Positions 27,556-61,089 of a DNA stretch of 64,000 nucleotides are shown one piece after another (within the stretch, counting starts at the first letter, position 1; each line of letters opens with the position of its first letter). The translations under genes and the position numbers were made by a program. Below the pieces are notes generated by a model. It was not told the origin of the DNA, did no database searches, and worked only from the letters and a program-made list of their open reading frames with translations. Source of the DNA: Martensiomyces pterosporus (Eukaryota; Kickxellomycota; Kickxellomycetes; Kickxellales; Kickxellaceae); assembly GCA_025201845.1 (NCBI GenBank), contig MU603998.1:2881-66880 (forward strand), read 5' to 3'.

Positions 27556-27664
27556 CGTCTAGTGGGGAAAAACAGTGCCTGACACTGGCGCCTCCTTTCA
27601 TCGCCTTACGTCTAATTTACCGTCTATCTCCTTTTATTACACTGCCTATTTTGGAACCAGAGTC

Positions 27665-29245: not shown

Positions 29246-29657
29246 GCCGGAACCTTATCTCGCATGCCATCAACTGACACCTGTGATTTCCACATAATTG
29301 TAGTCTTTTTTGTCACAAACCTCAGCGGATGAGTTGGTGAATCGCAGGGATCGTCGGTCTTGTTGAACTGCTGCTTACACATGTGTCCGGCCCATTCGCA
29401 TGAAGCAGCACAGTTTGCGCCATGGAGGCAATCTGCATGCATGTTTCAACACACCAACCCCGCTAGCGGCCAGAATGGCACCACCCATGTTGAACATAGA
29501 TTTCCGCTCGCTGCAGGCGAAGAGTTTCGGCCGGGCAGGTATTAAAGAAGACGAAGAGAGCCCTCATCATGTCATTGCTTCGCCTCGCCTCTCCTTCTCT
29601 GTTTCAGCCTCATACTTTGCTCCTGGGTATTTCTTTTTCTTTTTCTTGCTTTTGGCA
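29246..29657. other. Intergenic spacer between P450 genes 1 and 2
   Basis: A 412-base spacer. The end is T/C-rich (29625-29655). The frame is open upstream of the chosen start of P450 gene 2 but encodes no expected anchor. Confidence 0.5.
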
Positions 29658-31208: not shown

Positions 31209-31246
31209 GCAGCTGGACAGGCCCACTCATTCATCCATGACACGCT

Positions 31247-31252
31247 AATAAA
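31247..31252 (+). terminator. AATAAA polyadenylation signal for P450 gene 2
   Basis: AATAAA 39 bases after the stop codon of array member 2. Confidence 0.55.
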
Positions 31253-31641
31253 TGGCCACTGCTTGCTGAAATACCCCCTCATGTCGCTGCAGGCAGCCAG
31301 CGCTTGAGCTGATCGCCATGTCTAGATAGCTTTTTGCTCGTGCGAGTTGCTGCCGCCCGTTTGTTGCATCAGGGAAAAGAGGGCGTGCGCCCCAGGCAGC
31401 AGCAGTGCATTTTGAGAGCAAGCGCATTCGCCCTTAATGGTCAGCGAGTATTGGCACTGCAGCACAAAGCCACACACAGCTGGCGCTATGCGTCCATTGC
31501 CCACGCTGTCCTGACTAGCATGCTCGAGGCCAAGATGTATTTAATATCGCCAGCTTGAGGTCTAGTAGTTCTTCTGCCTCCGTCTTCCACCACTTTGGTT
31601 GCGCTCCTTAATTGTACTCGGCTATTGGCTTTTGTTTTGCA
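31253..31641. other. Intergenic spacer between P450 genes 2 and 3
   Basis: No gene or clear element seen. It contains short CAG/CTG-rich sequence near 31390-31410. Confidence 0.4.
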
Positions 31642-33195: not shown

Positions 33196-33480
33196 CGCGT
33201 TCATTTTTTTCTGCTGCTAGCTTTGACTGACACCGAGCCAAGTCGTGCTGTGTTGGCAAACACAATCGCTGTAACCCAGAGTGCACATAACTTGTTCACG
33301 CCATGTAAGGAGTTTGTGGCTTGCTGTGTGTGCTTTCCGGGCACATGGCCATTGTGCGAATTTTGGCTATCCAGCAAAGAGTGCTTGTCTTGCAGGGGAT
33401 GCGCTCAAAAGCAGGCGTCAAGGGAGATAGCGGCGCTTCAACTCCACACCCATTCGTTTTGTTCGCCACTCTAAAGCACT

Positions 33481-35085
33481 ATGATTCCACTCCGCTCAGC
33501 CTTTGAGATATTGACTGCGAAGCTGAACACCGTGCAGCATGCTGTAGCCTGTGTGACGGACCGGTACTCGTACACAGCTATCGCGGTGGCTCTCGGCGCG
33601 ACCTATCTCCTGGGAGCCGTGTCGTATGCCGTTTTCCTGTCGCCTCTACGCAACATACCCGGCAGCCTCATTCGTCGACTCACACTCCTGAAATACTATA
33701 TGGATGTGGTGCGCGGCATTGAGGCAGAAAAGACCGAGAGCAACTATCGCAGATACGGCGACATCTACCTGCTGGGCCCCAACCACGTCGCCATCTGCAA
33801 CCCAGCAGACTGCCGTCGCATCCTCAACTCGCAGGACTTTAAGAAAACGTTCCACTACCAGGCGTTTGCAGTAGTGGGCGACAACATGATGACAATGGTC
33901 AGCAATGAGAGGAACAACGAGATACGCAAGCTGATAGCGCCGGCATTCTCAGCCACTGGCCTGTCGCGGATGGAGCCGGCTATATTGCAGGCCAGTATTT
34001 GTGAGATTAAGCGCAAGTGGGACCAGGTCATTGGCGACAGTCAGCAGCAAGGCAAGCCGGCGGTGGTTAACTACTACATGGATGTGACACTGGCAGCATT
34101 TGACGTGATTGCCAGGCTGTGTTTCGGCGAGCACTCGCACTACCTGAGGGACAGCGACTGGAGAGTTGTCAACTGGGTCGAGAACTTCAACATAATGGGG
34201 ATGGCGCAGTATGTATTCAAACCCATTAGGTGGTTCCCATTCAGGCTCCTCAACGGCAAGCTTGAGCGCAGCTTGGCTGATTTACTGGCGTTTGCAAATA
34301 GAGCCATCCAGAAGAGGACCGAGTATCTAAACGAGCATCCCGCTCAGTCGGACAGGCCGAGCGATATCCTGCAAGCGATGATGGGTGCCCTGGAGCCCGA
34401 CGCCAAGATCAAGATGACCAAGTACCAGCTGCTTACGGAGACCATCGACATGCTCACGGGCGGCACAGCAACCATAGCGCAGACACTCACTTGGGCAATC
34501 CACTACCTCACACTATATCCCAGGGTGTACCAGAAGGCAGTTGCCGAGGTGCGCGGGCAGTTCGCAAGCGACCACCTTGTGACGTACAGGGATGGCCGCC
34601 AGCACCTGCCGTACCTAGAGGCAGTTCTGTACGAGGTGATGCGCATCCGCGGAGTCACCTCGCACTACGTCCCGCGCCTTGTGCCCGAGGGCGGGGCAAC
34701 CTTTTGTGGCCACCACCTGCCTGGAGGCACCTTTGTCTACGTAAACATTGCAGCTGTCCACATCCATGCAGACATCTGGGAAGAGCCCGAGAAGTTCCTA
34801 CCTGAGAGGTTTGTGGACAATGAGGACAACAGGCGCAAAATTATGATATTTAACCCCGGCGTGAGGATTTGTCCAGGGCGCAACCTGGCGTGGCTGGAGA
34901 TGATTACCACCCTGGGCAATTTGCTGAAGGACTACGATATCAAGGTCACCGACGATTCGCTGTTTGGGCCCGACAATGTCGACTCGCAAGGAGTGCCTCT
35001 GGTGATGCCCAGGATACAAATCCAGACCACGGGGCCGATGTTTCCTGAGCGCGACTGTCGCGTGGCCATCTCCAAGCACGTCTGA
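33481..35085 (+). CDS. Cytochrome P450, array member 4, with non-canonical I-helix
   Basis: Encodes 534 residues. N-terminal anchor (AIAVALGATYLLGAVSYAVF), hinge SPLRNIPG, K-helix EVMR, LPERF, heme loop FNPGVRICPGRNLAW with Cys464. The I-helix oxygen-activation motif reads GGTATIA where members 1-3 have GTDTT or SDTT. The acidic residue is Ala and the second Thr is Ile. In classical P450s the acid and Thr help proton delivery for O2 cleavage; families that use pre-reduced oxygen or rearrange peroxides can lack them. It is the most diverged of the five, but the heme loop is intact, so it is probably a folded enzyme with altered chemistry. Confidence 0.9.
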   Translation: MIPLRSAFEILTAKLNTVQHAVACVTDRYSYTAIAVALGATYLLGAVSYAVFLSPLRNIPGSLIRRLTLLKYYMDVVRGIEAEKTESNYRRYGDIYLLGPNHVAICNPADCRRILNSQDFKKTFHYQAFAVVGDNMMTMVSNERNNEIRKLIAPAFSATGLSRMEPAILQASICEIKRKWDQVIGDSQQQGKPAVVNYYMDVTLAAFDVIARLCFGEHSHYLRDSDWRVVNWVENFNIMGMAQYVFKPIRWFPFRLLNGKLERSLADLLAFANRAIQKRTEYLNEHPAQSDRPSDILQAMMGALEPDAKIKMTKYQLLTETIDMLTGGTATIAQTLTWAIHYLTLYPRVYQKAVAEVRGQFASDHLVTYRDGRQHLPYLEAVLYEVMRIRGVTSHYVPRLVPEGGATFCGHHLPGGTFVYVNIAAVHIHADIWEEPEKFLPERFVDNEDNRRKIMIFNPGVRICPGRNLAWLEMITTLGNLLKDYDIKVTDDSLFGPDNVDSQGVPLVMPRIQIQTTGPMFPERDCRVAISKHV

Positions 35086-35381
35086 GTGTATGCGACAGTC
35101 CAGCGGTTTCTATTTTTTTTCTATACCTCTAGCAGCCGCGCATGGAGTTTTGAGCGTATATCCTATTCGGTGACCCATTCACATGCTGGCTACATTCACT
35201 CTGCAGCCACCCCACGTTATCGCGCAGCCATCGCTGCTCTCCATGCATAATCTGCTATTCGAGCAAGCAAGTAGAGACGACTTGTTTGCCATACGCATCT
35301 ATCCCTTCTTGCCTTGGCTCTATCCAACCAAACGCCCTCTCTATATATTTTCTCTCTCTCGCTATTAACTAAAACGCTTCT

Positions 35382-36938
35382 ATGGCTATTTACCAGTGCC
35401 TCACGTCCAGGGAGCTTCCCTACTGGCGGTTCACCGCCATCGCCTCTGTCACCTACGTGGCCTACCGCGTCATCTACACGTTTTTCTTCTCGCCGTTCCG
35501 CAAGATCCCCGGGCACCCGCTGGCGAAGCTGACCAGCCTGCACCTCAAGCTTGTTGCAGCGATGGGCCGCATCGCTGATGCTGTCGAGGAGGATTACTAC
35601 GAGTTTGGCGACATCTATGAGATTGCGCCCGGCATGATTATCCTCAGCAACCCAGCAGAGTGCAAGCGCGTTCTGGGCACACACAATTTCAAAAAGTCGG
35701 ATATCTACCAGGCGTTTGCTATCGTCGGCGATTCCATATTTACCACACAGTCGGCGGATGTGAGCAGTGCGCGGAGAAGACTACTGGGGCCAGCATTCAC
35801 GCACGGGTACTTGAGTAGGATGGAGCCGACCATACTGGAGTGCGGCATTGTGTCGCTAAAGAGAAAGTGGGACAAGATGCTGAGCGAGCCAGGCGCTGAC
35901 GGAAAGGTCGTGGTGGAGTACTCGAGGCAGTTTTCGCTGGCTGCCTTCGATGTCATTAGCACGCTGATGTATGGCCAGAGATTCAACTCCCTTGGCGACT
36001 TCAAAATCAGCCATGTCAGGTGGATCGAGGCATTCACCACCCTGGGCCTGCTGAAATTCGCCATGCCGTTCGTCTCCAGATTCCCAGGCAGTCTCCTGGT
36101 GCAGGGACTCATCGGTCGAGTAAGGGATTTTACCAGGTTCACCGATGGTGCGACCGAAAGGCGCCGCAAGCTGCTGCACGAGATGAAGGAGGGCGAGGAC
36201 AGACCAAATGACATTCTACAAGCTCTCATCGATGCCGAGGACCCCGAAACAGGCGCTAGACTGACTGCGACGGAAATGACCTCCGAGAGCACCCTGATGC
36301 TCATAGCTGGCACGCATACGACGTCGCCCACCTTGGCGTGGACCCTGCACTACCTCCTCCTCTATCCAGAGGTGTACAGGAAGGCCGTGCAGGAGGTGAG
36401 AAGCACGTTCCTGCGCCACCACCTGATCAGGTACACAGAGGGCCGCTCCAAGCTGCCGTACCTCGAGGCATGTCTCTATGAGTCCATGCGCATCCGCTCT
36501 ATTGCCGGTCTGTTTATGCCCCGCGTAGTGCCCAAGGGCGGAGCCACGTTCCAGGGCCACTACTTGCCGGAGGGCACGCAGATCGGACTGAGCATTGCCG
36601 GGATGAACCACCACCTCGGCACCTGGGAGAATCCGCAGACATTTAGGCCAGAGAGGTTTCTGGAGGACAGGACGGCCAAGCACAGGATGCTGTCGTTTAG
36701 CACAGGCGTGCGAATCTGCCCGAGCAGGAATCTGGCGTGGGTAGAGATGATACCGGTTCTGGCCAACTTGCTGAAGGACTACGATATGGAGCTGCCAGAG
36801 GACTCGCTGTTCAAGCCGAGTAGGCTGGATGGCAATGGAAACCCCGTGGTGATGCCGCGTTTGCAGACGCTCACTGTCGCGCCAAAGTGCCAGGAGAGAG
36901 ACTGCCGAGTGGTCATATCGGCCGCTCCTGACTACTAG
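35382..36938 (+). CDS. Cytochrome P450, array member 5, with altered I-helix and heme loop
   Basis: Encodes 518 residues. A tatatatt tract (35343-35350) lies about 35 bases upstream of the ATG. Anchor (FTAIASVTYVAYRVIYTFFF), hinge SPFRKIPG, K-helix ESMR, RPERF. The I-helix is AGTHTTS, with His where an acid is expected. The heme loop is FSTGVRICPSRNLAW: Cys446 is present, but the Gly two residues later is Ser (codon AGC at 36723-36725, one G-to-A change from GGC). The reading frame is otherwise full length. This may be an enzyme with shifted activity or an early stage of decay. Confidence 0.9.
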   Translation: MAIYQCLTSRELPYWRFTAIASVTYVAYRVIYTFFFSPFRKIPGHPLAKLTSLHLKLVAAMGRIADAVEEDYYEFGDIYEIAPGMIILSNPAECKRVLGTHNFKKSDIYQAFAIVGDSIFTTQSADVSSARRRLLGPAFTHGYLSRMEPTILECGIVSLKRKWDKMLSEPGADGKVVVEYSRQFSLAAFDVISTLMYGQRFNSLGDFKISHVRWIEAFTTLGLLKFAMPFVSRFPGSLLVQGLIGRVRDFTRFTDGATERRRKLLHEMKEGEDRPNDILQALIDAEDPETGARLTATEMTSESTLMLIAGTHTTSPTLAWTLHYLLLYPEVYRKAVQEVRSTFLRHHLIRYTEGRSKLPYLEACLYESMRIRSIAGLFMPRVVPKGGATFQGHYLPEGTQIGLSIAGMNHHLGTWENPQTFRPERFLEDRTAKHRMLSFSTGVRICPSRNLAWVEMIPVLANLLKDYDMELPEDSLFKPSRLDGNGNPVVMPRLQTLTVAPKCQERDCRVVISAAPDY

Positions 36939-45752: not shown

Positions 45753-47135
45753 CTAGATGTGGGCCTTGTCTGGCAGTGAGACTGGAGCGTCTTCAAAGTG
45801 GAGATCCTCATACGCGGGGAGCGGGGGCATCGATGGGACGTGCCGTGGGTTCTGAGCGAGCGGCTGCGTGTCAAGTATAGGGAATTCAGACCGCGCATCC
45901 CACCCTGCCACCAGCTGCTTGCGATGCTTGCGCCACCGGTAAACGACAAAGAACGCAACGATGACTATAATCGAGGCGATAGGCACAACGGTGGCTATAA
46001 TGATAACTTGTGAGCGCGATAGTTTGCTGGTCTCGACTGGGACTGCAGGGACTGCGACAACACTTGCGGTAGGGGATGATGGGGAGGGCGTGTACATAAC
46101 AGAAGCTGAACTGTCTATCGGCGTGGTTGTGGAGACCGGGCCACTAATCAGCGTGGTATTGAAGTTCAGCGGTGTCTGAATGACGCCCTCTCGAGGGTAT
46201 ATGTCGCCTGAAAAGACAGTTACGTTGGCGATAGTTGTTGATGAAGGCGATGTCGAGTTCATCTTGTACGCAGCATCGGTGTTTGCGACAAATGCCGGAT
46301 CCTTGATAAATGTCGCCAATGTGCGGTTGAGAACACTGTTGGCAAACATGACGTAGCTTGAGAAGAGCGTAAAGTAGCTCGCCTGGTGGCTCGCGGTGCA
46401 GATGTCGCTGCCGTAAACAGCAGAGTGGCTGAATACACCGGCAAGGACAATGTCATTGCCAACGTTGGCGTAGACTGAGCCATATGGTACAGTGCACGAC
46501 TTGTTGTATGCCTGGCCAGTCAGGACATTCCCACAGACAAAGTCCTTGGTGTTGGCGCTGTAGATGGCCGACGAGTTGCTGCAGTCGCTGGCTGTTGGGT
46601 CTGGTGTCATCACGACCGGGTTGTTCCACCATGGCTGGTTATTTGGGTTCATTTTCGGGCGCACCGATCTCCGCACAAACGTGACGCTGTCCCAGGACTG
46701 GCTGTCCATCGCAATTTGCATTGTCCAGCTCTTGCTGGCATTGGTGTTGAACTCTATCACGGCGATGTTGTTTGCGAATGTTTTGGTGTCGTACGACGGA
46801 TGTATGTGTATCTTCTCTACAGGATGCTGCGTGTATGCAGCTAGCACATTGTTGTCAAAGAGGAGCTGGTAGTCGGTGCTGCTGGTTTCGACCTTGCCAT
46901 TCGAGTCGTAGTTGAGGCAGCTGGCGGCTATGAACGCAGCACGGTTGTCAAACGGCAGGAACTCGCAGCTGGTTTGCAGTCCGTTCTTGTACAGGACTCC
47001 ACCAACGGCCTTTTTGATGATGTCCGAGGATGTAGGGGGCGCCCGTTTTGTGATTCCAGCCAACCGACTGCCGTGGGTAGTGTGGAGTAGACATGACGTC
47101 AAGGTTATGGCGGAGGCAGTGCGTAGTAGCTTCAT
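45753..47135 (-). CDS. Type-I membrane trypsin-fold pseudoprotease, paralogue 1
   Basis: Encodes 460 residues from the ATG at 47135; the frame upstream lacks a signal peptide. Signal peptide about 1-22, dibasic KR at 30-31 (possible Kex2 cut). An S1-like domain runs about 44-275: GGVLYKNG, FIAASCLNY (Ser72 where trypsin has His57), HPSYDTKTFANNIAVIEFN (Asn123 where trypsin has Asp102), and SCTVPYGSVY (Pro217-Tyr218 where trypsin has Asp194-Ser195). So all three catalytic positions are replaced, although the surrounding fold motifs persist. Many N-glycosylation sequons, a Ser/Thr/Pro stalk (320-370), a membrane helix (377-399), a basic stop-transfer (RWRKHRK), and a 55-residue cytosolic tail ending PAYEDLHFEDAP. 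Probable surface receptor or adhesin. Two paralogues lie upstream. Confidence 0.82.
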   Translation of the reverse strand: MKLLRTASAITLTSCLLHTTHGSRLAGITKRAPPTSSDIIKKAVGGVLYKNGLQTSCEFLPFDNRAAFIAASCLNYDSNGKVETSSTDYQLLFDNNVLAAYTQHPVEKIHIHPSYDTKTFANNIAVIEFNTNASKSWTMQIAMDSQSWDSVTFVRRSVRPKMNPNNQPWWNNPVVMTPDPTASDCSNSSAIYSANTKDFVCGNVLTGQAYNKSCTVPYGSVYANVGNDIVLAGVFSHSAVYGSDICTASHQASYFTLFSSYVMFANSVLNRTLATFIKDPAFVANTDAAYKMNSTSPSSTTIANVTVFSGDIYPREGVIQTPLNFNTTLISGPVSTTTPIDSSASVMYTPSPSSPTASVVAVPAVPVETSKLSRSQVIIIATVVPIASIIVIVAFFVVYRWRKHRKQLVAGWDARSEFPILDTQPLAQNPRHVPSMPPLPAYEDLHFEDAPVSLPDKAHI

Positions 47136-47250
47136 CGTTATTAATGTACAGAAATCAGAGAAAGGGTATCGGAGAGAGCGTATTAGAGGAGACGAGGTGT
47201 AGGAGCAGCGAAACGGATGCAAACGCACGGTTAGACAAGGAGACGCAGGA

Positions 47251-47256
47251 TATATA
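47251..47256 (-). promoter_or_regulatory. Putative TATA box of pseudoprotease 1
   Basis: TATATA on the minus strand within GGTATATATCC, about 116 bases before the ATG. Confidence 0.4.
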
Positions 47257-47488
47257 CCGTCTACGCCTATCCGTGGGCTTCTCGGCTTTCTTATCCTGCC
47301 GCTCATCCTGTCTATTTTGCATTCATTTCGACCGATTGTAGATTGGCAGTCGCATGAAACCTGTATCTGCTATTTTGGGCATGCTAGGATTGGCTTCGCT
47401 TGGCGCAAGTCCCATGCACCGATGCATCGACTGCATTCTGCGATACACCGATTCGCACACAGATACAAATGGATATCTACAGCTCGAC

Positions 47489-47648
47489 CACCAATCGCCG
47501 CAGCCGCCTGCCATCGCGTCTACCGTTTTGCCACTCGGATGATGGAGCGGTGGCTGAATGGCGTAAACATGTGCAGGATGCCGGAGGCAAGAGAGGAGAC
47601 AGCTGGAAGTGGCAGGAAAGGCTAACCGGCTTATCTATTTTTCCTTAG
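47489..47648. repeat. Left flank copy of gap-flanking 160-bp duplicate
   Basis: Matches 47794-47953 over 160 bases with two substitutions seen (T/C and G/C). Almost certainly overlapping contig ends that were not merged. Confidence 0.9.
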
Positions 47649-47793
47649 NNNNNNNNNNNNNNNNNNNNNNNNNNNNNNNNNNNNNNNNNNNNNNNNNNNN
47701 NNNNNNNNNNNNNNNNNNNNNNNNNNNNNNNNNNNNNNNNNNNNNNNNNNNNNNNNNNNNNNNNNNNNNNNNNNNNNNNNNNNNNNNNNNNNN
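47649..47793. other. Assembly gap (145 N)
   Basis: Run of N between two near-identical flanks. Confidence 0.99.
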
Positions 47794-47953
47794 CACCAAT
47801 CGCCGCAGCCGCCTGCCATCGCGTCTACCGCTTTGCCACTCGGATGATGCAGCGGTGGCTGAATGGCGTAAACATGTGCAGGATGCCGGAGGCAAGAGAG
47901 GAGACAGCTGGAAGTGGCAGGAAAGGCTAACCGGCTTATCTATTTTTCCTTAG
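47794..47953. repeat. Right flank copy of gap-flanking 160-bp duplicate
   Basis: Partner of 47489-47648; see that entry. Confidence 0.9.
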
Positions 47954-48193
47954 CTCCCAACATGGGCATCCCATGACGGAAATCGCCTAACAGCCTTTCT
48001 TTGCACCCCATGTCTTTTGCATCTGGCCTTGCTGTGGTTGGTTGCGCACAGGTCGGGCCCTTCACGCGCTTGTCGCGGCAATATGCAGCCAGCCTGTAAT
48101 ATGTAAGTCTAATTATATAACAGCGAGCAGGCGAAAAATGAACAGGAAACTTGGACAAGCTATTCCACGGAAACAAACACACAAGCACGCTTA

Positions 48194-49585
48194 TTAAGGC
48201 TGGTGCTCAGGCAAGGGCTGCTTGGGCACGTTGCCTGCAAGTGCATCGATGAACTCGATGTCCGCATAGTTTGGCGGCACAGTCTGCCTCACAGAGGCAC
48301 CGCCCAATTCCCTGGCGAGAGTCTGGGCGCTGATGTTGCTTCTCTCTCCAAGCGGGTCCCAGCTGGCAGCATTTCGGCGCTTCTTGAGCACCCTGTACGA
48401 GAAGAATAGCGCGACGATAATTGCAATGGACAAGATTGGGACAACGGTGGCAACTGCAATGGTTTCTCCCCTCGATAGCCCATTGCTGCTTGAGCCTGCT
48501 GTAGCAGGATTTACAGAGAGGGTTGGCATCGCGGGCGAACTGCTTTGCCGTGCGGCAGAACTGTTTACCCCTGTTGAGGTGGGCGTTGCAGATCCGGTGC
48601 TCAACGAAGGGGCTGCTGATACGCCTGGGCTCATCAGCTGCTGCAGTACTCCTACGCGTGGAAAAAGGTCGCCGCTCATGGTGGTTGTTCCCTTGATGTT
48701 TGTCGCCGTGCCCGTATTCATCTTGTAGCTGGCGCTTGCGTTTGTCTTGTATGCCAAGTTGCTAGTGTATGTGTTGACTGTGTGTCCACGCAGGACGCTG
48801 TTGGCAAATGCGGTGTAGTTTGAGAGCAGTGTGTAGTAGCTCAGCTGGTGCCTGTATGCGCAGATGTTGTCTCCGTAGATCACAGTGTGGCTGTAGAGCC
48901 CTGCCACCGCCAAGCGCTTGCCAGAAACGCTGTACAGGCTGCCGAATGGAATCGAACATGCGTTGCTGTTTGGTATTCCTTGCACCGTCCAGTTTCCACA
49001 AAGGAAATCGCCCTGGTTGGCAGCAAACAAGCCCGACGATGCCCTGCAGTCGTCGTCTGTTTCAGTGTGCTCGGCCACCTGCGGGTTGTTCCACACAGAT
49101 GCGGTTATGTCTCTAAGCGACCGCCGCACGTAAATGACGTCAGCCCACGAATTCCTGTCTACTGCAATTTGGTTTGTCCAGTTCACAGTTCCATGCGTGT
49201 TAAACTCCACCACGGCAATGTTGTTGGCAATTGTGTTTGGGTCATAGGCCGGGTGAATGTGTATCTTTTCGATGGGGAGCTGTGCGCGCGTTGTAATTTT
49301 GTTGTTGTCAATAGAGACCTCGTACTTTGTTGTCTCGTTCAGCTGGCCGCTGCTGTAGTCGAAGCAGCTGGCTGCGACAAACGCAGCCATACTGTCGATG
49401 GGGATGCACTCGCAGGATGTCGCCAAGGAGTTTTTAATCAGAAGTGCGCCAACAAAGTTGCCTGTAATGTCTGCATATGAGAACAACTGCTGCGCCTGCT
49501 CGTCTGGCTGGTATTTGCCATGAACCGATGGGATCACGGCAAGTGCAGAGCATGCCACAGTCAAAAGTGCAGAGATGGGCTTCAT
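48194..49585 (-). CDS. Type-I membrane trypsin-fold pseudoprotease, paralogue 2
   Basis: Encodes 463 residues. Signal peptide 1-23 (ends SVHGK); no dibasic site follows. The S1-like domain (about 44-270) has VGALLIKN, FVAASCFDY (Ser73 at the His position), HPAYDPNTIANNIAVVEFN (Asn122 at the Asp position) and ACSIPFGSLY (Pro213-Phe214 at the Asp-Ser position). So the triad is gone in the same way as in paralogue 1. CGNW at 196-199 and paired cysteines are shared. A Ser/Thr stalk (320-370) leads to a membrane helix (374-396), KKRR, and a cytosolic tail with PPNY (437-440), a canonical PPxY site for WW domains, in the context PNYADIEFIDA that matches PAYEDLHFEDA of paralogue 1. Confidence 0.82.
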   Translation of the reverse strand: MKPISALLTVACSALAVIPSVHGKYQPDEQAQQLFSYADITGNFVGALLIKNSLATSCECIPIDSMAAFVAASCFDYSSGQLNETTKYEVSIDNNKITTRAQLPIEKIHIHPAYDPNTIANNIAVVEFNTHGTVNWTNQIAVDRNSWADVIYVRRSLRDITASVWNNPQVAEHTETDDDCRASSGLFAANQGDFLCGNWTVQGIPNSNACSIPFGSLYSVSGKRLAVAGLYSHTVIYGDNICAYRHQLSYYTLLSNYTAFANSVLRGHTVNTYTSNLAYKTNASASYKMNTGTATNIKGTTTMSGDLFPRVGVLQQLMSPGVSAAPSLSTGSATPTSTGVNSSAARQSSSPAMPTLSVNPATAGSSSNGLSRGETIAVATVVPILSIAIIVALFFSYRVLKKRRNAASWDPLGERSNISAQTLARELGGASVRQTVPPNYADIEFIDALAGNVPKQPLPEHQP

Positions 49586-50044
49586 TTCCTATGCGGGCGT
49601 GGCGGCATTAACCACGGAGTACAACTACAAGTGCTGCTAACTATGTGTGTGGAGGCAAAGCATGTGGTAGAAATGAGAAGGCAATGGATGCACAGATCCG
49701 ACTGCAGCTGCATTTGTATCTTCATCTCCACTGCCTACTCTGTCTATTCCCAGATGTGTAGCCAGATCGCGCCAGAGGCAAGATGGAGGCATGCATATGT
49801 ACTATTATTATCATGCCATCGCTCTTTTCCCCCGAAACAGCAGATCTGCATGTGTATTTACGTTCAGGCAATCTCGGCCATTGATGCCAAGACCAGACAG
49901 CGCGTCATTTTAAAAATGAACTCTGATCAACAAGCTAATGCTTGGCTTTCCAGTATCAGCCGCATATGGACTCATATCTTTATTACAAATGGCCGGGATA
50001 ACACGTCATAAGAGCAAAGGAAGCGAGCTCGCACCCATGGTACA
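49586..50044. other. Intergenic spacer between pseudoproteases 2 and 3
   Basis: A 459-base spacer; nothing recognisable. Confidence 0.45.
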
Positions 50045-51406
50045 CTACACTTCAGGCGTTTTACCGCTGAGGATGCTTGACTTTGATCCAAAGTCAACGT
50101 TGATCTTGAGCTTGGATCTGGCAAAGCCCTTGAGTGTAGCTAAGGATCCACTGAAATCGTTAGAGTCGTTAAGGTTGTCGTGGCTTTCACGGTCTTCATG
50201 GTCTCCATGGTCTTCATGGTTTTCATGGCCGTCGGGCCCCTCCTCTTTTCGTAGCCACCTGCAGCACAGAATGATGGCCAGCGGTGTAAGAGCAAGAACG
50301 ACAATTACGCCCGCCATTACAGATACGTCCTGTCTGTGCATCGCCTCAGTTGCCACGCGAGTCCTGCTGTAATGCTCAAACAGCGGCGTGATTGTGGCAG
50401 TTGGCAGTGTTGCCGAAGACGTGGTGATAGCAGAGAGGGTGCTCAGCTGAGTGGCCAGAGCTGCCGAGTTGGTGTTGACCTTTGGCTGTTTCAAGCCCAA
50501 ATGAGGATACGCATCGCCGCCATATATGGTAATCTCTGGAGCAGTGGGTGCAGGAGATGCGGGCCGCATCATGTAGTCGGCATCAGTGTTGGGCCTGTAG
50601 CTGGGGCTCCTCGTGTACACATCCATGGATCGTCTAAGTACTTTGCAGGCAAACATGACGTAGTCCGTGAGCAAGGTGTAGTAGTGGAGCTGGCTCTTGT
50701 CCGCACAGATGGACTTGCCCGAAGTTGCCGAGTGGCTGTAGATTGCAGCGACTGCCATGTCGTCTCCAGTAAACGCAATGACCGAGCCAAAGGGCATGCT
50801 GCACGCAGCATTTAGCACTGGCTGTGCGCTCCAGTTTCCACACAGGAAATCGGAGGTGTTGGGGGCATAGACTGGAGACGCGCTTTTGCATCCCCTGGCT
50901 GACTGCTGGGGCCGCGTGTCGAGGTAGTGCGGCGCCCAAAACATGGCACTGGCGTCAACCATCGTTCTGCGCACGTATGTCAGGTTGGTCCACGAGTTTC
51001 TGTCCAGAGCAATGTAGTTGTTCCACAGCTTCTGTGCCTGTGTGTTGAACTCTACGATGGCGATGTTGTTGGCAAACGTGCTGGCGTCGTACATTGGATG
51101 GACGTGGATGGCTTCGATGGTGTGCTGCGCGCTGACTGTCTTCAGACTGTTGTCCAGGTAGATCTGGTACACCGTGTCGTTGGCTAGCTGGCTGCCCTGA
51201 AAGTCCAGGCAGCTGGCCGCAATGAAGCCGGCGCGGTTGTCGATGGGGACAATCTCGCAGCTTGTTTGGTAGCCGTTTTTGACCAGCACAGCACCCACCA
51301 CGCTGCCAATGGTGGCTGATGTGACCTCGCGCCGGCGCAGGTCACCTTGGCTGATGCCGAAAACCGACAGTGCAAAGAATGCAAATATGAAAATGCAGTT
51401 CACCAT
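50045..51406 (-). CDS. Type-I membrane trypsin-fold pseudoprotease, paralogue 3
   Basis: Encodes 453 residues from the ATG at 51406 (MVNCIFIFAFFALSVFG); the earlier in-frame ATG adds a second hydrophobic stretch and is less likely. Signal peptide about 1-19, basic RRR at 24-26. The S1-like domain has GAVLVKNGYQTSCEIVPIDN, FIAASCLDF (Ser65), HPMYDASTFANNIAIVEFN (Asn114), and ACSMPFGSVI (Pro205-Phe206). This is the same replaced triad as its two paralogues. A Ser/Thr stalk is followed by a membrane helix (about 362-382) and a cytosolic tail unlike the other two: a His/Asp/Glu/Asn-rich stretch at 393-417, then a basic segment and a Ser-rich end. Probable surface receptor with its own intracellular output. 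Confidence 0.82.
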   Translation of the reverse strand: MVNCIFIFAFFALSVFGISQGDLRRREVTSATIGSVVGAVLVKNGYQTSCEIVPIDNRAGFIAASCLDFQGSQLANDTVYQIYLDNSLKTVSAQHTIEAIHVHPMYDASTFANNIAIVEFNTQAQKLWNNYIALDRNSWTNLTYVRRTMVDASAMFWAPHYLDTRPQQSARGCKSASPVYAPNTSDFLCGNWSAQPVLNAACSMPFGSVIAFTGDDMAVAAIYSHSATSGKSICADKSQLHYYTLLTDYVMFACKVLRRSMDVYTRSPSYRPNTDADYMMRPASPAPTAPEITIYGGDAYPHLGLKQPKVNTNSAALATQLSTLSAITTSSATLPTATITPLFEHYSRTRVATEAMHRQDVSVMAGVIVVLALTPLAIILCCRWLRKEEGPDGHENHEDHGDHEDRESHDNLNDSNDFSGSLATLKGFARSKLKINVDFGSKSSILSGKTPEV

Positions 51407-52557: not shown

Positions 52558-55380
52558 ATGGCTGGTGTCCAGGGCGGCTTTCAACCTGCACCCAGCGCGG
52601 CTGCTTTCCCAAGGCCAAGCGGGTATGGCACTCTGGGCAGGCGCCAGCGCGTGGTTGCAAACTTTGTCGAGCTGCAGAGGCTCCCACAGGGCCAGATCTA
52701 CCAGTACGACGTCGACATTGTGCCAAAAAGCGGGCCGTTCAAAAAGCTGCCGCCGTCTGCCTTCATGCGTAGCGTCTTTGACGATGCGATGCGCCGCCAT
52801 CGCACCACTAAGCTTAACGGCATCCCCGTCGTCTACGACACCCGCAAGATTGCCTACGCGCCCAATCAGATCTGCAGGAATGGAGAGGTTCTTCTGTTGG
52901 AGGTAAGCCACCAAGCACAGCAGCGATTGTCACATCGTGCAGTCCTTATAACACAGCACTGTGTGCTTCTCAACAAATACATGACTAGAGCAGAGCATGC
53001 TGTGTTTGTGCCATTTATCGGTCAAGTGATTAACGCGTCATAAACACTTTTGCATCCCCCCTTGCGTTCTCCATACCGTACAACCTGCTTACAGGCAGCA
53101 CACACGGGCGACGGCCGTGCAGAGGAGTTCACAGTCAAGATCCAGGAGACTGCGGTAATCGACATGAGCATTCTGTCCGAGTTTGTCAAGGGCAGCGGCA
53201 TCGTTGACATCGCCTCCATCCAGCCCGCGCTCACGGCGCTCGATCTGGCGATCGGCTCGGTCGCCAGCTCCGAGATGGTTGGGTTTGGCCGCTCGTTCTT
53301 TACGCGTGCCCAGTCGATGCCCATCTCAGGTGGCCTCGAGCTCTGGCGCGGGTTCTCCCTCAGCGTTCGCCCTGGCGAAGGCAAGATGTACTTGAACGCC
53401 AACACTGCTGTCACCAGCATGTACGCCTCTGGTCCCCTGCTTGACGGCCTGATGAACGTCCTGAATCTCCGCGACCCTAGCCAGCTCAAGGACGCAATCA
53501 GCCAGCACACCATGAGGGACCTCAGGCCATACCTGAACGGGCTGGGCGTTGTTGTCAGACACCGCAGCATGCGTGGCCAGCAAAAGTTTTCCGTCAAGGG
53601 ACTGACCACCAAGCCGCTGGACAAGGAGACCTTCGCGTGGGAGGACCCCAGCAAGCCCGGGAGCGAGGAGGTCATCAGTGTTGCGGCGTACTACAAGCGC
53701 CGCTACAACATTGCGCTTCGCTACCCGTTCCTCCCGGGCGTCGTCGGCAAGAAGGGCTCGGCGTTCCCCATCGAGCTGTGCGAGGTTGTCGAGAACCAGC
53801 GCTACAAGGGCAAGCTTGACGAGAGGCAGACAGCCGATATGGTCAAGTTTGCGTGCCAGCGCCCCAGCGAGAACCAGAACCGCATCATTGACGTCTTGAG
53901 GCAGCTGAACCTGGGCCAGGCACCTGTGATCAAGGCATTTGGCCTGGCGCTACCCAGCAGCCTCACCGAGGTCGAATCGCGTGTGCTGCCGGCGCCTACC
54001 ATCAACTACGGCAGACAGTCGCGCGAGGCATCGCTGACTCCCTCTGGCGGCGCTTGGAATATGCGCGACAAGTGCGTGCTGACCTCGGGCATGCCTCTCA
54101 AGTACTGGGCCGTTCTCGTGCTCGCCAACAAGAGGTTTGTCCCGGAGAGCAGCATGCAGCACTTTGTGACCAGCCTTGTCAGGATGTGCAACCAGACCGG
54201 GTACAGAATCGAGCAGCCCCATCCGCCCATTGCGTATGGCAACCCGAACGCGGACATTTCCCGCGAGATGAGGAAGGCGTGCGACATGATCAGGCTGCCC
54301 CCTGGAACCGCCCCGCAGCTGCTCCTGGTTGTGCTGCCGTCGACCAACACGGTCATGTACCAGACGGTGAAGAACTGCGCCTACACCACGCTGGGCATCC
54401 AAACCCAGTGCATGCAGTCGAAGCACGTGCAGAAGGCAAGCCCGCAGTACTGCGCCAACCTGTGCCTGAAGATCAACGCCAAGCTGGGCGGCACCAACCA
54501 GGGCCTGGTGCCCCAGAACCTGCAGAAAATGGTGCGCATGAAGCCCACGCTGTTCCTTGGATGCGACGTCACGCACCCCGCGCCCGGAGAAGGCGACAGG
54601 CCGTCGATTGCGTCGGTGGTTGGGTCGACTGACCTGATGGGGCTGCGCTATACCGCGACGCTGATCCAGCTGCCATCAAGGCAGGAGCTCGTCAGCAAGC
54701 TGCAGGAAGCAATTGTCCGCCACCTCAAGCTCTTCTTCAAGGGAACCAGGACCAAGCCGCAGCGCATCGTCTTTTATCGCGACGGTGTGAGCGAGACGCA
54801 GTTTGCGCAGGTCAGGGACCGCGAGATCATCGAGATTCAGCGTGCGTGTGCCAGCCTGGAGAAGGGATACAGCCCCGATATAACCTTTTTGGCTGTTCTT
54901 AAGCGCCACAACACTCGCTTCTTCCCTGTCGGACGCGAGGGCGACCGCACTGGCAACTGCGTCCCGGGAACCGTGGTCGACCGTGGCGTGACCCTGCCTG
55001 GGATGTTTGATTTTTACCTGTTTGCGCATGGCGCGATCCAAGGCACGTCCCGCCCCACGCACTACTACGTGCTGCATGACGATGCCAAGTTTACGTCGGA
55101 TGAGATCCAGCAGCTCACGTACCACCTGTGCTACACCTATGCGATCTGCACCCGCTCGGTGTCCCTGGTCCCTCCCGTGTACTACGCCCATCGTGTGGCC
55201 GACAGGGCGCGCTGCCACCTGGTCGACATGGGTGTTGAGTTCGAGGATGCAAGCTCGTTGTCCAGCGGATACTACGGCGGCGTTGGCACCAGGCCTACCA
55301 GGACCGAGGAGGAGGCCCGCAGTATGACCAAGATCATCAGGACCCACGACCGCCTGGACGAGACCATGTACTTCATGTGA
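52558..55380 (+). CDS. AGO: Argonaute (slicer-competent RNA-silencing effector), two exons
   Basis: Join of 52558-52902 and 53095-55380, 876 residues. The intron is 192 bases (donor GTAAGC, acceptor CTTACAG, phase 0), and the open frame through it hits a stop. Domains: N-domain, DUF1785/linker (RRHRTTKLN onward, including LELWRGFSLSVRPGEGKMYLN), PAZ (about 235-365, including KRRYNIALRYPFLPG), MID (about 440-580, with YQTVKNCAYTTLGIQTQCM), PIWI (about 585-860). The PIWI catalytic tetrad is complete: Asp606 (LGCDVTHP), Glu646 (RQEL), Asp678 (YRDGVSE), His814 (YYAHRVADRAR). C-terminus TMYFM is typical. Binds small RNAs and cleaves complementary targets in RNAi. No Dicer or RdRP is in the window. 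Confidence 0.95.
52903..53094 (+). other. Intron of the Argonaute gene (192 bp)
   Basis: GT at 52903, AG at 53094, joining ...VLLLE to AAHTGDG. Removing it gives a continuous Argonaute N-domain. Confidence 0.9.
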
Positions 55381-58268: not shown

Positions 58269-59126
58269 TTAAGTGGCGTAGGTTCTGGCCAAGTACACCT
58301 GAGTCAAGCCAGTTGACTGCACGATAAAGTCCAGGTGGGCATTGACATGGGTGAACAGCGTGTAGCCATCTGATGTTCCGCAAGTGGCATCCTGGAAGCG
58401 CCCTCCCTGGCTATCAAGACCAGCAAGATAGTACCCGTTCTGCGCCTGGATAACCACTCCCGTCCCCGAGTCGCCCTTACAAGTGCTGTTTCCAGGACTG
58501 TACTTGTTCAGAGTGCAGATCTTGGGGCCGTCCGACGACTGATAGTTGCTGTCAAACAGCATGCACCCCTCCTTGTCGCCCACTTGCAGCACAGCGCCCT
58601 TCAGCTCAGAGGGCATGGAATTCGGGTCGTTGTTGGAGACAGTGGCGCCCCAGCCCAAGGCAACGACTTTGTAGCCAGCAGTGATCTGTCCGTTGTAAAT
58701 GGAGATTGCCTGGGTGTTCTTGTCCATCTTCATGTCGGGGACGACAATGATGGCAATGTCGTTCTCGTTGACGTTGTTGGCCGTTTTGGTGTTGTACTGG
58801 GGGTGCACAACAATGTTCGAGGCATTGGTTTGCGTCTGCAGCTTGATGTTGTCGCTGCCGTAGCCCAGAGTTACCTGTGAGGCGGCGTAGGGCTTGTCGT
58901 TGTCGTCAGTCATGCAGTGTGCAGCCGTGACAATGTGGTTTTTCGACAGGATGCTGCCGCCGCAACTAAACGTGACGTCGCCGACGCTGATGGCGATTTT
59001 GACGGCAAAGGGCGCGCCGTTGTCGGGCATGTCAAAGCCGCCGACAATGCGCTTGCCGAGGTCCGCGGGGATGGTCAGCGCGCTGATGGTTGTGGCGGCC
59101 GAGATGCAGAATGCAAGGAACTTCAT
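58269..59126 (-). CDS. Secreted trypsin-family (S1) serine protease
   Basis: Encodes 285 residues. Signal peptide 1-16, short propeptide ending LGKR, then the mature N-terminus IVGG (27-30). Triad present: His70 (VTAAHC), Asp123 (ENDIAII), Ser220 (CKGDSGTG). GWGATVSN is the usual autolysis-region motif. The residue six before the catalytic Ser is Ser214, the position of Asp189 in trypsin; Ser there is the chymotrypsin state, so specificity may not be tryptic. The oxyanion motif is GDSGTG rather than GDSGGP. Activation probably needs cleavage after KR by a Kex2-like enzyme. A secreted digestive or host-related protease is likely. Confidence 0.92.
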   Translation of the reverse strand: MKFLAFCISAATTISALTIPADLGKRIVGGFDMPDNGAPFAVKIAISVGDVTFSCGGSILSKNHIVTAAHCMTDDNDKPYAASQVTLGYGSDNIKLQTQTNASNIVVHPQYNTKTANNVNENDIAIIVVPDMKMDKNTQAISIYNGQITAGYKVVALGWGATVSNNDPNSMPSELKGAVLQVGDKEGCMLFDSNYQSSDGPKICTLNKYSPGNSTCKGDSGTGVVIQAQNGYYLAGLDSQGGRFQDATCGTSDGYTLFTHVNAHLDFIVQSTGLTQVYLARTYAT

Positions 59127-59739: not shown

Positions 59740-61089
59740 TTAGCTTGAGGGCCAGCCGCAAGAAACCGACGTTCCAGATTGGTAGCAAGCAGTTCCAGAG
59801 CCGCAGGCCTCCGCGATCCACTTGCCGTAGAGGCAGAGGAAGTAGTTGGCGTTCTTGCCAGTCGTGTCGGCGCACTGGTACGTGCCCTCGCCCGAGCAGG
59901 GACCGCCGGCAACGGGGCCACTGCCGCCAGAGGTAGTCGAGGTAGTGGTGACGGCCGAGGTAGTGCTGGTAGCGGTGGTTGTAGAAGTAGTCGAGGTGGT
60001 GACAGGAGACGAGGTGGTCGTGGTGCTGGTGGTCGTGCTAGTCGTGGTCGATGTGTTGGGGGCAGACGATGTAGCAGTAGTTGTCGTAGTGCTGACAGGA
60101 GAAGTACCGCACTTCATGTTGCTCTTCAGCCAGCTCGACAGGCTCTGGACGTAGGCCTGGTTGTTGGAGTACCACGAGGCATCCCACAGCATGATGCCGC
60201 CGAAGGTCGATGGGTAGCTGGTGTACAGCTGGGTGAGATCGGCCTGGAGAGTCGCCAAGTCAAGGTAGCCGTTGCCAGCAGCGCCCGAGCCAGCAGGCAC
60301 GCCAACGTAGAGCTTGGAGTTGGGGTTGGGGTTGCCCTTGGTGAGCGTGTCCCAGCTGGTGTAGTCAAAGTTCCACTGGTTGTTGATGTTGGCCAGGTTG
60401 CACGGGTTGTTATAGAACTGCACGTAGTCATTGTCGATCCAGGAGCCCGACAGAGTCGATCCGAGGTTGCCATCAGGGTAGACGCACTGGGGAGCAGCAG
60501 AGATGATGTACTGCTTCGAGGCACCCTGGAAGTAGGAGCGCAGCTGCGAGATGAATGCAGGGTATCCGGTGTGGTCGCCGCCCTCAATGTCGAGGTCAAC
60601 GCCGTCCAAGACAGCGTCGCCGTAGGGGCGGTACTGGTGAGTGCCTCCGAGGAACATGTTCCAGACGGTGTTGGCAAATGCCTGTCCGTCGGAGCTGCTG
60701 CTCAGGCCGTATGAGCCTGCTGCGCCACCGAGGGAGATGACGATCTTCTTGCCTGCGGCCTGGCAGGTCTTGATGTCAGTGCCGATATCGGGGCAGGTGA
60801 GTGTGTTGGTGCCGTTGAAATTGGTCTCGCAGTGGAATGCGTGGTTCAGAACAGGCAGGCCAGTGAGGTTGAAGTTGATCACGAAGGAGAGGTTGATGAT
60901 GTCGAAGGTGCTGTCCTGGCAGTACGCAGCGAGGTTCTTCTCCCAGTTGGCGGGATCGTCAAGATGAGCGCCGCCCCAGGAGTTCTGTCCCCAGTAGGTG
61001 ACGACGTTGTTGGCGCACGTCGAGCTGTAGGACGCCATGGCTGTGGCTGCCAGCCCAGTGGCGGCAAGAATGGTGGCGGCTTTGATCAT
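59740..61089 (-). CDS. Class III chitinase, GH18 with Ser/Thr linker and CBM19
   Basis: Encodes 449 residues. Signal peptide 1-19. GH18 catalytic domain (about 26-326): YWGQNSWGG at 32-40, KIVISLGGAAGSYG, and DGVDLDIEGG at 162-171 with catalytic Glu169. A Ser/Thr-rich linker (about 330-388), likely O-mannosylated, joins a C-terminal six-Cys domain (398-444: CSGEGTYQCADTTGKNANYF, FLCLYGKWIAEACGSGTACYQ) that matches CBM19 chitin-binding domains. Hydrolyses chitin in cell-wall remodeling, septation or exogenous chitin breakdown. Architecture resembles yeast Cts1. Confidence 0.95.
   Translation of the reverse strand: MIKAATILAATGLAATAMASYSSTCANNVVTYWGQNSWGGAHLDDPANWEKNLAAYCQDSTFDIINLSFVINFNLTGLPVLNHAFHCETNFNGTNTLTCPDIGTDIKTCQAAGKKIVISLGGAAGSYGLSSSSDGQAFANTVWNMFLGGTHQYRPYGDAVLDGVDLDIEGGDHTGYPAFISQLRSYFQGASKQYIISAAPQCVYPDGNLGSTLSGSWIDNDYVQFYNNPCNLANINNQWNFDYTSWDTLTKGNPNPNSKLYVGVPAGSGAAGNGYLDLATLQADLTQLYTSYPSTFGGIMLWDASWYSNNQAYVQSLSSWLKSNMKCGTSPVSTTTTTATSSAPNTSTTTSTTTSTTTTSSPVTTSTTSTTTATSTTSAVTTTSTTSGGSGPVAGGPCSGEGTYQCADTTGKNANYFLCLYGKWIAEACGSGTACYQSGTSVSCGWPSS

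What the first reader, a model, noticed from the sequence alone, without database searches (positions are those of the whole stretch)
45753..51406. Three tandem membrane-anchored trypsin-fold pseudoproteases with the catalytic triad replaced in the same way
Seen: all three share signal peptide, S1-like domain, Ser/Thr stalk, one membrane helix and a cytosolic tail. Against the active S1 gene at 58269-59126, TAAHC becomes AASC (His to Ser), NDIA becomes NNIA (Asp to Asn), and C-x-x-Asp-Ser-Gly becomes C-x-x-Pro-Phe/Tyr-Gly-Ser. The replacements are the same across paralogues that otherwise diverge, so the loss is old and the new residues look selected. Known: catalytically dead S1 homologues act as binding proteins in animals. 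Inference: a family of fungal surface receptors or adhesins built on a dead protease fold. I do not know of a described fungal family with this layout.
Basis: partly seen in the sequence, partly recalled or inferred. Interest (0 to 1): 0.82.

Follow-up and report, generated by a model that had tools for sequence, protein, structure and literature searches.

The report
Membrane-anchored dead trypsins of Kickxellales fungi
A fungus carries a large family of probable cell-surface proteins whose outer part is a digestive-enzyme fold that has lost its cutting residues and which mostly end inside the cell in a short docking signal, so they most likely bind something rather than digest it.

Summary
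Three adjacent intron-free genes (45753-47135, 48194-49585, 50045-51406, minus strand) encode signal peptide, S1 (trypsin) domain, Ser/Thr/Pro-rich stalk, one membrane helix and a tail, with His57, Asp102 and Ser195 all replaced. The genome is Martensiomyces pterosporus (Kickxellales). I found 18 such loci in it: 15 full-length, 2 cut by contig ends, 1 remnant; relatives occur in Dipsacomyces, Coemansia and Kickxella. Over 53 aligned members (of 66 at hand) position 102 is Asn in 53 and 195 Tyr/Phe in 53; 57 is Ser 37, Asn 13, Asp 2, Ala 1, never His: 'always Ser' holds for the three genes, not the family. Profile alignment to active S1 covers the domain (score 88, shuffled controls at most 20). 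New here: 40 of 61 tails carry [LP]PxY (2 expected), a WW-domain ligand, and the genome has an Rsp5-like locus; all 25 triad-lacking S1 proteins examined look membrane-anchored against 4 of 14 intact ones (not significant once phylogeny is allowed for). Best reading: non-enzymatic surface binding proteins with Rsp5-regulated turnover; ligand unknown. Paper searches found no description.

The parts
45753..47135 (-). Gene A: 460-aa type I membrane protein with pseudo-S1 head
   Evidence: ORF; Pfam Trypsin 15.6 bits, below cut-off; tree places it with P0050 of Dipsacomyces, 100/97
47067..47135 (-). Gene A signal-peptide region
   Evidence: hydrophobic core, coordinates; no dedicated signal-peptide program available
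46326..47006 (-). Gene A pseudo-S1 domain
   Evidence: profile envelope residues 44-270, coordinates
46917..46928 (-). Gene A AASC: position 57 is Ser
46761..46775 (-). Gene A ANNIA: position 102 is Asn
46476..46496 (-). Gene A CTVPYGS: 194 Pro, 195 Tyr
46008..46178 (-). Gene A stalk, 51% Ser/Thr/Pro
45951..46007 (-). Gene A membrane helix
   Evidence: Kyte-Doolittle window
45810..45821 (-). Gene A cytosolic LPAY (PY-type motif)
48194..49585 (-). Gene B: 463-aa type I membrane protein with pseudo-S1 head
   Evidence: ORF; Pfam Trypsin 17.5 bits, below cut-off; nearest P0003 of Dipsacomyces, 100/97
48788..49453 (-). Gene B pseudo-S1 domain
49364..49375 (-). Gene B AASC: position 57 is Ser
49214..49228 (-). 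Gene B ANNIA: position 102 is Asn
48938..48958 (-). Gene B CSIPFGS: 194 Pro, 195 Phe
48662..48676 (-). Gene B SGDLF, part of a conserved extension after the S1 domain, not seen in the four active S1 proteins of the same alignment
   Evidence: alignment; (G/S)G(D/N) in 15 of 15 own members
48404..48460 (-). Gene B membrane helix
48293..48361 (-). Gene B juxtamembrane motif WDPLGERSNISAQTLARELGGAS
   Evidence: related motif in other members
48266..48277 (-). Gene B cytosolic PPNY (PY motif)
50045..51406 (-). Gene C: 453-aa type I membrane protein with pseudo-S1 head and divergent tail without a PY motif
   Evidence: ORF; no Pfam Trypsin hit; in the family clade
50633..51298 (-). Gene C pseudo-S1 domain
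51209..51220 (-). Gene C AASC: position 57 is Ser
51059..51073 (-). Gene C ANNIA: position 102 is Asn
50783..50803 (-). Gene C CSMPFGS: 194 Pro, 195 Phe
50264..50320 (-). Gene C membrane helix
58269..59126 (-).
   Evidence: Pfam Trypsin 95.1 bits; triad HDS; no anchor

Best explanation
The three genes belong to a Kickxellales family of type I membrane proteins whose extracellular S1 (trypsin-type) domain has lost the residues for peptide hydrolysis and has been kept as a binding head. The Ser/Thr-rich stalk would carry the head through the cell wall, the single helix anchors it, and the cytosolic tail ([LP]PxY usually about 40-60 residues after the helix, often with a W-D-P...E-L-G-G-A type motif before it) would dock the WW domains of the Rsp5-type ubiquitin ligase, so that surface level, or uptake of bound ligand, is set by ubiquitylation and endocytosis. 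Shown here: sequence homology over the S1 domain, family-wide loss of all three catalytic residues, kept cysteines, purifying selection, a helix and tail in most members, tail motifs far above chance, WW and HECT domains of an Rsp5-like locus. Inferred: the fold in three dimensions, surface location, binding role, Rsp5 docking. Unknown: the ligand. Tandem duplication with strong divergence suggests that paralogues differ in what they bind.
For: Homology over 205 columns, score 88.3 against at most 19.6 for 20 shuffled controls. Position 102 Asn 53 of 53, 195 Tyr/Phe 53 of 53, 194 Pro 51 of 53, 57 never His in 53; these four columns are more conserved than random columns of the domain (permutation p 0.0004), so the new residues are kept, not drifting. 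All six S1 cysteines in 45 of 53 rows. pN below pS in 105 of 105 paralogue pairs, median 0.42 and 0.70, 14 pairs saturated. One clade at 100/100, 39 of the 66 family-1 proteins being in the tree. [LP]PxY in 40 of 61 tails, shuffles 2.05 on average and at most 9 in 2000; 11 of 16 in this genome. Three WW domains and a HECT domain lie on contig C46 in adjacent ORFs of one strand. PPxY and LPxY are described as Rsp5 ligand motifs in PMC1557994 (passages seen).
Against: No three-dimensional model could be made. No expression, localisation or ligand data. Gene C, four other TM members of this genome and 16 more proteins lack [LP]PxY (21 of 61); one member (L017) ends like a GPI-anchored protein and has no tail, so the tail is not essential to all. 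PY and LPxY motifs are common (about 4% and 7% of S. cerevisiae proteins according to PMC1557994), and the 61 tails are related, so the shuffle test overstates independence. The WW and HECT ORFs on C46 are separate frames; that they form one gene is my inference, and other WW proteins exist. Loss of a triad does not by itself prove a binding role.
Confidence: 0.55

Rival explanations
1. Anchored decoys for protease inhibitors: the dead heads mop up serpin-, Kunitz- or Kazal-type inhibitors from hosts, prey or competitors and so protect the fungus's own secreted trypsins.
For: Of 39 S1-type ORFs examined in the genome 14 keep the triad, 10 of these without an anchor, one of them 7 kb from the cluster (58269-59126). 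Decoy use of dead enzyme folds is an established idea (recalled).
Against: Position 195 is Tyr/Phe in 53 of 53, 194 Pro in 51 of 53, and the N-terminal IVGG is absent in the 15 own members, which should spoil the S1 pocket and oxyanion loop that canonical inhibitors grip (inference). A decoy needs no conserved cytosolic motif.
Confidence: 0.12
2. Structural cell-wall adhesins or spacers: the head glues hyphae or spores to surfaces, and the tail motifs only serve disposal.
For: Position of the helix differs widely between members, so stalks differ in length, and one family-1 member is GPI-like; this resembles fungal adhesin layout (recalled).
Against: 14 of 15 full members of this genome keep a membrane helix with a tail rather than a wall-linked end.
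Confidence: 0.2
3. Regulators of active S1 proteases in the secretory pathway (chaperone or pseudoenzyme partner).
For: Dead paralogues that regulate active partners are known (PMC5201418, start of abstract in the listing, for another enzyme class).
Against: No visible pairing of dead and active genes: family-1 loci lie on C30, C37, C40, C70, C109, C114 and C115; only C30 and C70 also bear S1 genes with an intact triad among those examined. No interaction data either way.
Confidence: 0.08
4. Still catalytic by a relocated site (for example Ser214 with the neighbouring conserved His215).
For: Ser at 214 in 51 of 53 and His at 215 in 45 of 53 (numbering by alignment, recalled).
Against: Among the 45 most conserved columns listed I see no second Asp/His/Ser set; 214 and 215 are sequence neighbours; Tyr/Phe fills 195. 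Not excluded by structure.
Confidence: 0.03

Closest known systems
S1A serine protease homologues (SPHs) of insects and other animals
   Same: Trypsin-type domain with lost triad; [quoted passage not shown]
   Different: Animal proteins, most of them predicted secreted, six of the 13 with clip domains (same listing); no conserved PY tail that I know of (recalled)
Phytophthora glucanase inhibitor proteins (GIPs)
   Same: Catalytically inactive S1-type proteins of a filamentous eukaryote that act as apoplastic effectors (PMC3091767, passages seen)
   Different: Oomycete, secreted; no membrane helix or tail mentioned in the passages seen; no GIP sequence compared here
Ecm14, fungal M14 pseudopeptidase
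   Same: Conserved fungal pseudopeptidase proposed to act in the extracellular matrix (PMC7706225, title and start of abstract in the listing)
   Different: Metallocarboxypeptidase family; one gene in yeast
Fungal WSC/Mid2-type wall sensors
   Same: Layout of extracellular head, Ser/Thr-rich stalk, one helix, short tail (recalled); one of 53 members hits Pfam Mid2 at E 2.3e-4
   Different: Head is an S1 domain, not a WSC domain (recalled); no relation of heads tested
PY-motif membrane proteins handled by Rsp5/Nedd4
   Same: Cytosolic PPxY/LPxY
   Different: No member with an S1 head known to me; docking not tested here

Membership tests
Peptidase family S1A (trypsin/chymotrypsin) | Sequence homology over the catalytic domain | tested here: met
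   hhalign score 88.3 over 205 columns, shuffled at most 19.6; Pfam Trypsin at E 0.01 or better in 27 of 53 members
Peptidase family S1A (trypsin/chymotrypsin) | Double beta-barrel structure | not testable with these tools
Peptidase family S1A (trypsin/chymotrypsin) | His57-Asp102-Ser195 triad | tested here: not met
   0 of 53 members keep any of the three
Peptidase family S1A (trypsin/chymotrypsin) | Cysteines of disulphides 42-58, 168-182, 191-220 | tested here: met
   all six Cys in 45 of 53 rows; six Cys are invariant in 12 active S1 proteins; numbering recalled
Peptidase family S1A (trypsin/chymotrypsin) | IVGG-type activated N-terminus with Asp194 | tested here: not met
   no IVGG in the 15 own family-1 members; 194 is Pro in 51 of 53, never Asp
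Pseudo-S1 proteins (SPH/GIP-like) | S1 homology with lost catalytic residues | tested here: met
Pseudo-S1 proteins (SPH/GIP-like) | Demonstrated lack of peptidase activity or binding function | not testable with these tools
   needs purified protein
Phytophthora GIP family | Direct sequence relationship to GIPs | not tested
   no GIP sequence was compared
Rsp5/Nedd4 substrates or adaptors | Cytosolic PPxY or LPxY | tested here: met
   40 of 61 tails; A and B yes, C no
Rsp5/Nedd4 substrates or adaptors | Physical binding to WW domains and ubiquitylation | not testable with these tools
   only an Rsp5-like locus (3 WW, HECT) was shown

The most novel reading that the evidence does not exclude
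Kickxellales repeatedly turned the trypsin fold into a membrane receptor head. One clade (family 1) and a second TM lineage (family 2, with Tyr/Phe/Thr/Leu at 57 and Tyr/Phe/Gly/Ala at 195 but Asp102 kept) have tails in which an E/D-L-G-G motif recurs (three of four family-2 tails, part of family 1), and the family-2 tail also occurs on a neighbouring protein with no recognisable S1 domain. This would be a multigene surface-recognition system (prey, host, partner or self/non-self) in which tandem copies diversify the head while the tail feeds a common intracellular pathway, Rsp5-linked in family 1.
Probability: 0.25. Interest if true: 0.82.

Novelty: new variant of a known kind. Interest (0 to 1): 0.62.

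Why it matters
Pseudoproteases of the S1 fold are known to me mainly from animals and oomycetes, where most are secreted (recalled). A large fungal family over four genera with the dead domain on a stalk, one membrane helix and a conserved docking motif inside the cell would be a new kind of fungal surface protein. It is easy to miss: in this genome only three family-1 places exceeded Pfam's Trypsin cut-off. It gives testable predictions on ligand binding and on turnover, and a case of repeated loss of catalysis within one genome.

Tried and rejected
Chance or low complexity: rejected by the domain-wide profile alignment with shuffled and reversed controls.

Pseudogene decay: rejected for the 15 full ORFs, which stay open with pN below pS in 105 of 105 pairs. 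One true remnant exists (C115:51398-51661).

Intact triad elsewhere in the domain: looked for among the most conserved columns and not seen.

Single loss of catalysis for all dead S1 proteins: rejected (p-AU 0.0009, a grouping named after seeing the tree). Family 1 plus family 2 as one clade: not rejected (p-AU 0.134), and not shown either. The similarity of their TM-plus-tail profiles is inflated by the hydrophobic helix and had no control; I count only the shared E/D-L-G-G motif as suggestive. Searching the non-S1 C204 tail against the proteins at hand found three of four family-2 tails and no family-1 tail above the inclusion threshold, which speaks against close kinship of the two tails.

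Link between loss of triad and anchoring: 25 of 25 against 4 of 14 (Fisher 1.6e-6), but only 3 independent contrasts on the tree, sign test not significant. I therefore report the pattern, not a law.

Led nowhere: NCBIfam scan, one irrelevant weak hit; the profile search of the protein collection with the 15-row alignment gave 7 hits, fewer than single sequences did (38 and 15), perhaps because stalk words flooded the candidates; structure and fold searches could not be run. No search of other fungal genomes was possible beyond the protein collection, so absence elsewhere is not claimed.

Limits of counts: 53 of 66 distinct family-1 proteins at hand were put in alignment A2; 13 were left out (fragments, near-copies, double or broken gene models and P0047: P0001, P0006, P0020, P0029, P0035, P0037, P0039, P0041, P0042, P0045, P0047, P0051, P0053). 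The 61 tails include a few near-copies and three doubtful ones (P0045, whose 'tail' holds a second domain; P0049 and P0055, short). The S1 census uses 39 ORFs; two of them (L049 first ORF, L055) were cut by the edge of my stretch, and reading their full ends did not change the calls. L046 (C3, 32 bits) was fetched but not recovered by my profile and was left out. Anchor and signal calls are hydropathy rules of my own, not a trained predictor. In the tree table nine rows whose names hold a plus sign were not counted in their groups; the tests used all rows. Family counts in the genome are lower bounds by the tool's own statement; P0047, a further named protein of the species, lies on a contig not found in the held assembly.
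Full report
What is there. Three intron-free ORFs lie head to tail on the minus strand at 45753-47135 (A, 460 aa), 48194-49585 (B, 463 aa) and 50045-51406 (C, 453 aa). Each has an N-terminal hydrophobic core (15 of 15 family members of this genome pass a 9-residue threshold; 425 of 3000 internal control segments do), a domain with the order of S1 landmarks, a stalk with 38-51% Ser/Thr/Pro, one hydrophobic helix and a 65-72 residue tail. Pfam Trypsin scores 15.6 and 17.5 bits for A and B against a cut-off of 20.6, and C has no Trypsin hit, while the S1 gene with intact triad at 58269-59126 scores 95.1.

Is it really S1? A profile of the 15 paralogue ectodomains aligned to a profile of 12 S1 proteins with intact triad of the same genome gives probability 97.7%, score 88.3 over 205 columns; 20 column-shuffled versions reach at most 19.6, the reversed one 11.6. 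A profile of 53 members finds S1 proteases in the PDB sequence set: best E 5.9e-6, 249 sequences at E up to 1, and the 60 listed are S1 proteases by name, judged by eye; the matches are strongest over the first half of the domain. Six cysteines that are invariant in the active set and correspond to the canonical S1 disulphides 42-58, 168-182, 191-220 (numbering recalled) are all present in 45 of 53 family rows.

How big is the family? In the window's assembly (17.4 Mb, 216 contigs) I count 18 loci: 15 full-length, two cut by contig ends and one remnant with only stalk, helix and tail, on contigs C30, C37, C40, C70, C109, C114 and C115, four of the full copies on C115. A 100% match names the genome: Martensiomyces pterosporus, Kickxellales. 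Relatives come from Dipsacomyces, Coemansia and Kickxella. Whether other fungi have it is open; the protein search needs shared exact words and two of its three runs were capped. A and B each pair with a Dipsacomyces protein (P0050, P0003; 100/97 both); these carry consecutive locus tags on contigs of the same length, 5687 bases, so the neighbourhood is probably older than the split of the two genera.

The replaced triad. In alignment A2 (53 of 66 proteins at hand) position 102 is Asn in 53 of 53, 195 is Tyr (42) or Phe (11), 194 is Pro in 51, and 57 is Ser 37, Asn 13, Asp 2, Ala 1. Asn102 ranks fourth of 229 domain columns in conservation, 195 eleventh, 194 twenty-fifth, 57 thirty-eighth; the four together beat random columns (p 0.0004). 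Ser at 214 (51 of 53) and His at 215 (45 of 53) are also kept. So the former active site is a conserved site without the catalytic residues. The 15 paralogues are under purifying selection (pN below pS in 105 of 105 pairs, 14 saturated).

Anatomy beyond the head. After the S1 domain comes a conserved extension with a G-(G/S)-D-x-Y type motif (the core (G/S)-G-(D/N) in 15 of 15 own members), not seen in the four active S1 proteins of the alignment. Nine of 15 have a dibasic site near residues 16-60, a possible Kex2 site (inference). The tail carries [LP]PxY in 40 of 61 proteins with a tail of 15 residues or more (22 PPxY, 18 LPxY), usually about 40-60 residues after the helix; shuffled tails give 2.05 on average and at most 9 in 2000 trials. 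In this genome it is 11 of 16; A has LPAY, B has PPNY, C has none. A search of the genome with the helix-plus-tail of one member finds 16 places, all of them family-1 loci. PPxY and LPxY are reported as ligands of Rsp5 WW domains in yeast (PMC1557994, passages seen). On contig C46 one ORF with three WW domains is followed on the same strand by an ORF with a HECT domain, the Rsp5 layout; that they are one gene is inferred. One member, L017, ends in a GPI-like signal instead of helix and tail.

Other dead S1 proteins in the same genome. Of 39 S1-type ORFs examined, 14 keep His/Asp/Ser and 25 do not. All 25 look membrane-anchored (18 helix with tail, 7 GPI-like); of the 14 intact ones 4 look GPI-anchored and none has a helix with tail (two cut ends rechecked without change). 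The difference is large as a count (Fisher 1.6e-6) but rests on three independent contrasts on the tree and is not significant there. The dead forms as one clade are rejected (p-AU 0.0009). A second TM lineage (C204 twice, C184, C18 near 186 kb) keeps IVGG-type N-termini and Asp102 but has Tyr/Phe/Thr/Leu at 57 and Tyr/Phe/Gly/Ala at 195; three of its four tails share L-A-E-(E/D)-L-G-G, which resembles part of the family-1 tails (B has LARELGG). The family-2 tail (34-45% identity) also sits on a neighbouring C204 protein with a signal-peptide-like start and no Pfam hit. Whether families 1 and 2 share one anchored ancestor is undecided (p-AU 0.134), and a direct search with that tail did not reach family 1.

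How it most likely works. Shown: homology, loss of catalytic residues, conserved replacement, anchoring by sequence, tail motifs, an Rsp5-like locus. Inferred: the head binds a ligand, the stalk spans the wall, the tail is bound by Rsp5 and sets turnover or uptake. The ligand is unknown. Copies with 30-45% identity to B, several in tandem, speak for diversified binding. Rivals are inhibitor decoys, adhesins, regulators of active trypsins, and a relocated active site; the last is least likely.

What is known. Of ten searches of the held paper library eight looked for such a family and their listings, some capped, show no description; two searches served the PY motif and the GIPs. Subscription papers are mostly absent from that library. 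Closest are insect SPHs (PMC1761132, abstract start), Phytophthora GIPs (PMC3091767, passages) and fungal Ecm14 of another family (PMC7706225, abstract start). A survey of early-diverging fungi lists S01 as extracellular proteases for nutrition and notes their abundance in pathogens (PMC8778642, passages). A review of pseudoenzymes has no trypsin or S1 passage (PMC10211241, term search). An Aspergillus niger survey counts non-peptidase homologues but the passages seen name no S1 case (PMC7804941).

Verdict. A real, conserved and sizeable family; as a kind, a new variant of known S1 pseudoproteases with receptor-like architecture. Interest 0.62.

Noticed in passing
L049:3-1418(-), L049:2042-3070(-), L051:618-1865(+), L053:62-1786(-): Second lineage of membrane-anchored pseudo-S1 proteins that keeps an IVGG-type N-terminus and Asp102 but has lost His57 and Ser195; three of the four share a long tail with LAE(E/D)LGG.
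   Followed up: partly
L071:1794-3158(-) (C204): Neighbour of two family-2 genes with a signal-peptide-like start, a related helix and tail, but no Pfam hit and no S1 domain: the tail seems to be a module of its own.
   Followed up: partly
L054:92-1630(+), L055:1-1527(-), L056:508-1644(+), L045:442-1776(-), L050:1700-3133(+), L057:264-1493(+): Further S1 proteins with broken triads and GPI-like C-termini, from other branches of the tree.
   Followed up: partly
L017:234-1583(-) (C114): Family-1 member with a GPI-like C-terminus in place of helix and tail.
   Followed up: no
P0001, P0045, P0051: Proteins of Dipsacomyces and Coemansia with more than one pseudo-S1 region or with joined modules; true two-headed proteins or fused gene models.
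   Followed up: no
window 47489-47953: A 160-base direct repeat (99% identical) stands on both sides of a 145-base run of N between genes A and B; looks like an assembly gap, not biology.
   Followed up: yes
window 53050-55380: Long ORF that reads like an Argonaute protein next to the cluster (recognised by eye, not searched).
   Followed up: no
window 59740-61089: ORF that reads like a GH18 chitinase with a Ser/Thr linker and a C-terminal cysteine-rich module (by eye, not searched).
   Followed up: no
window 27575-36938: Row of five similar P450-like ORFs on the plus strand (by eye, not searched).
   Followed up: no
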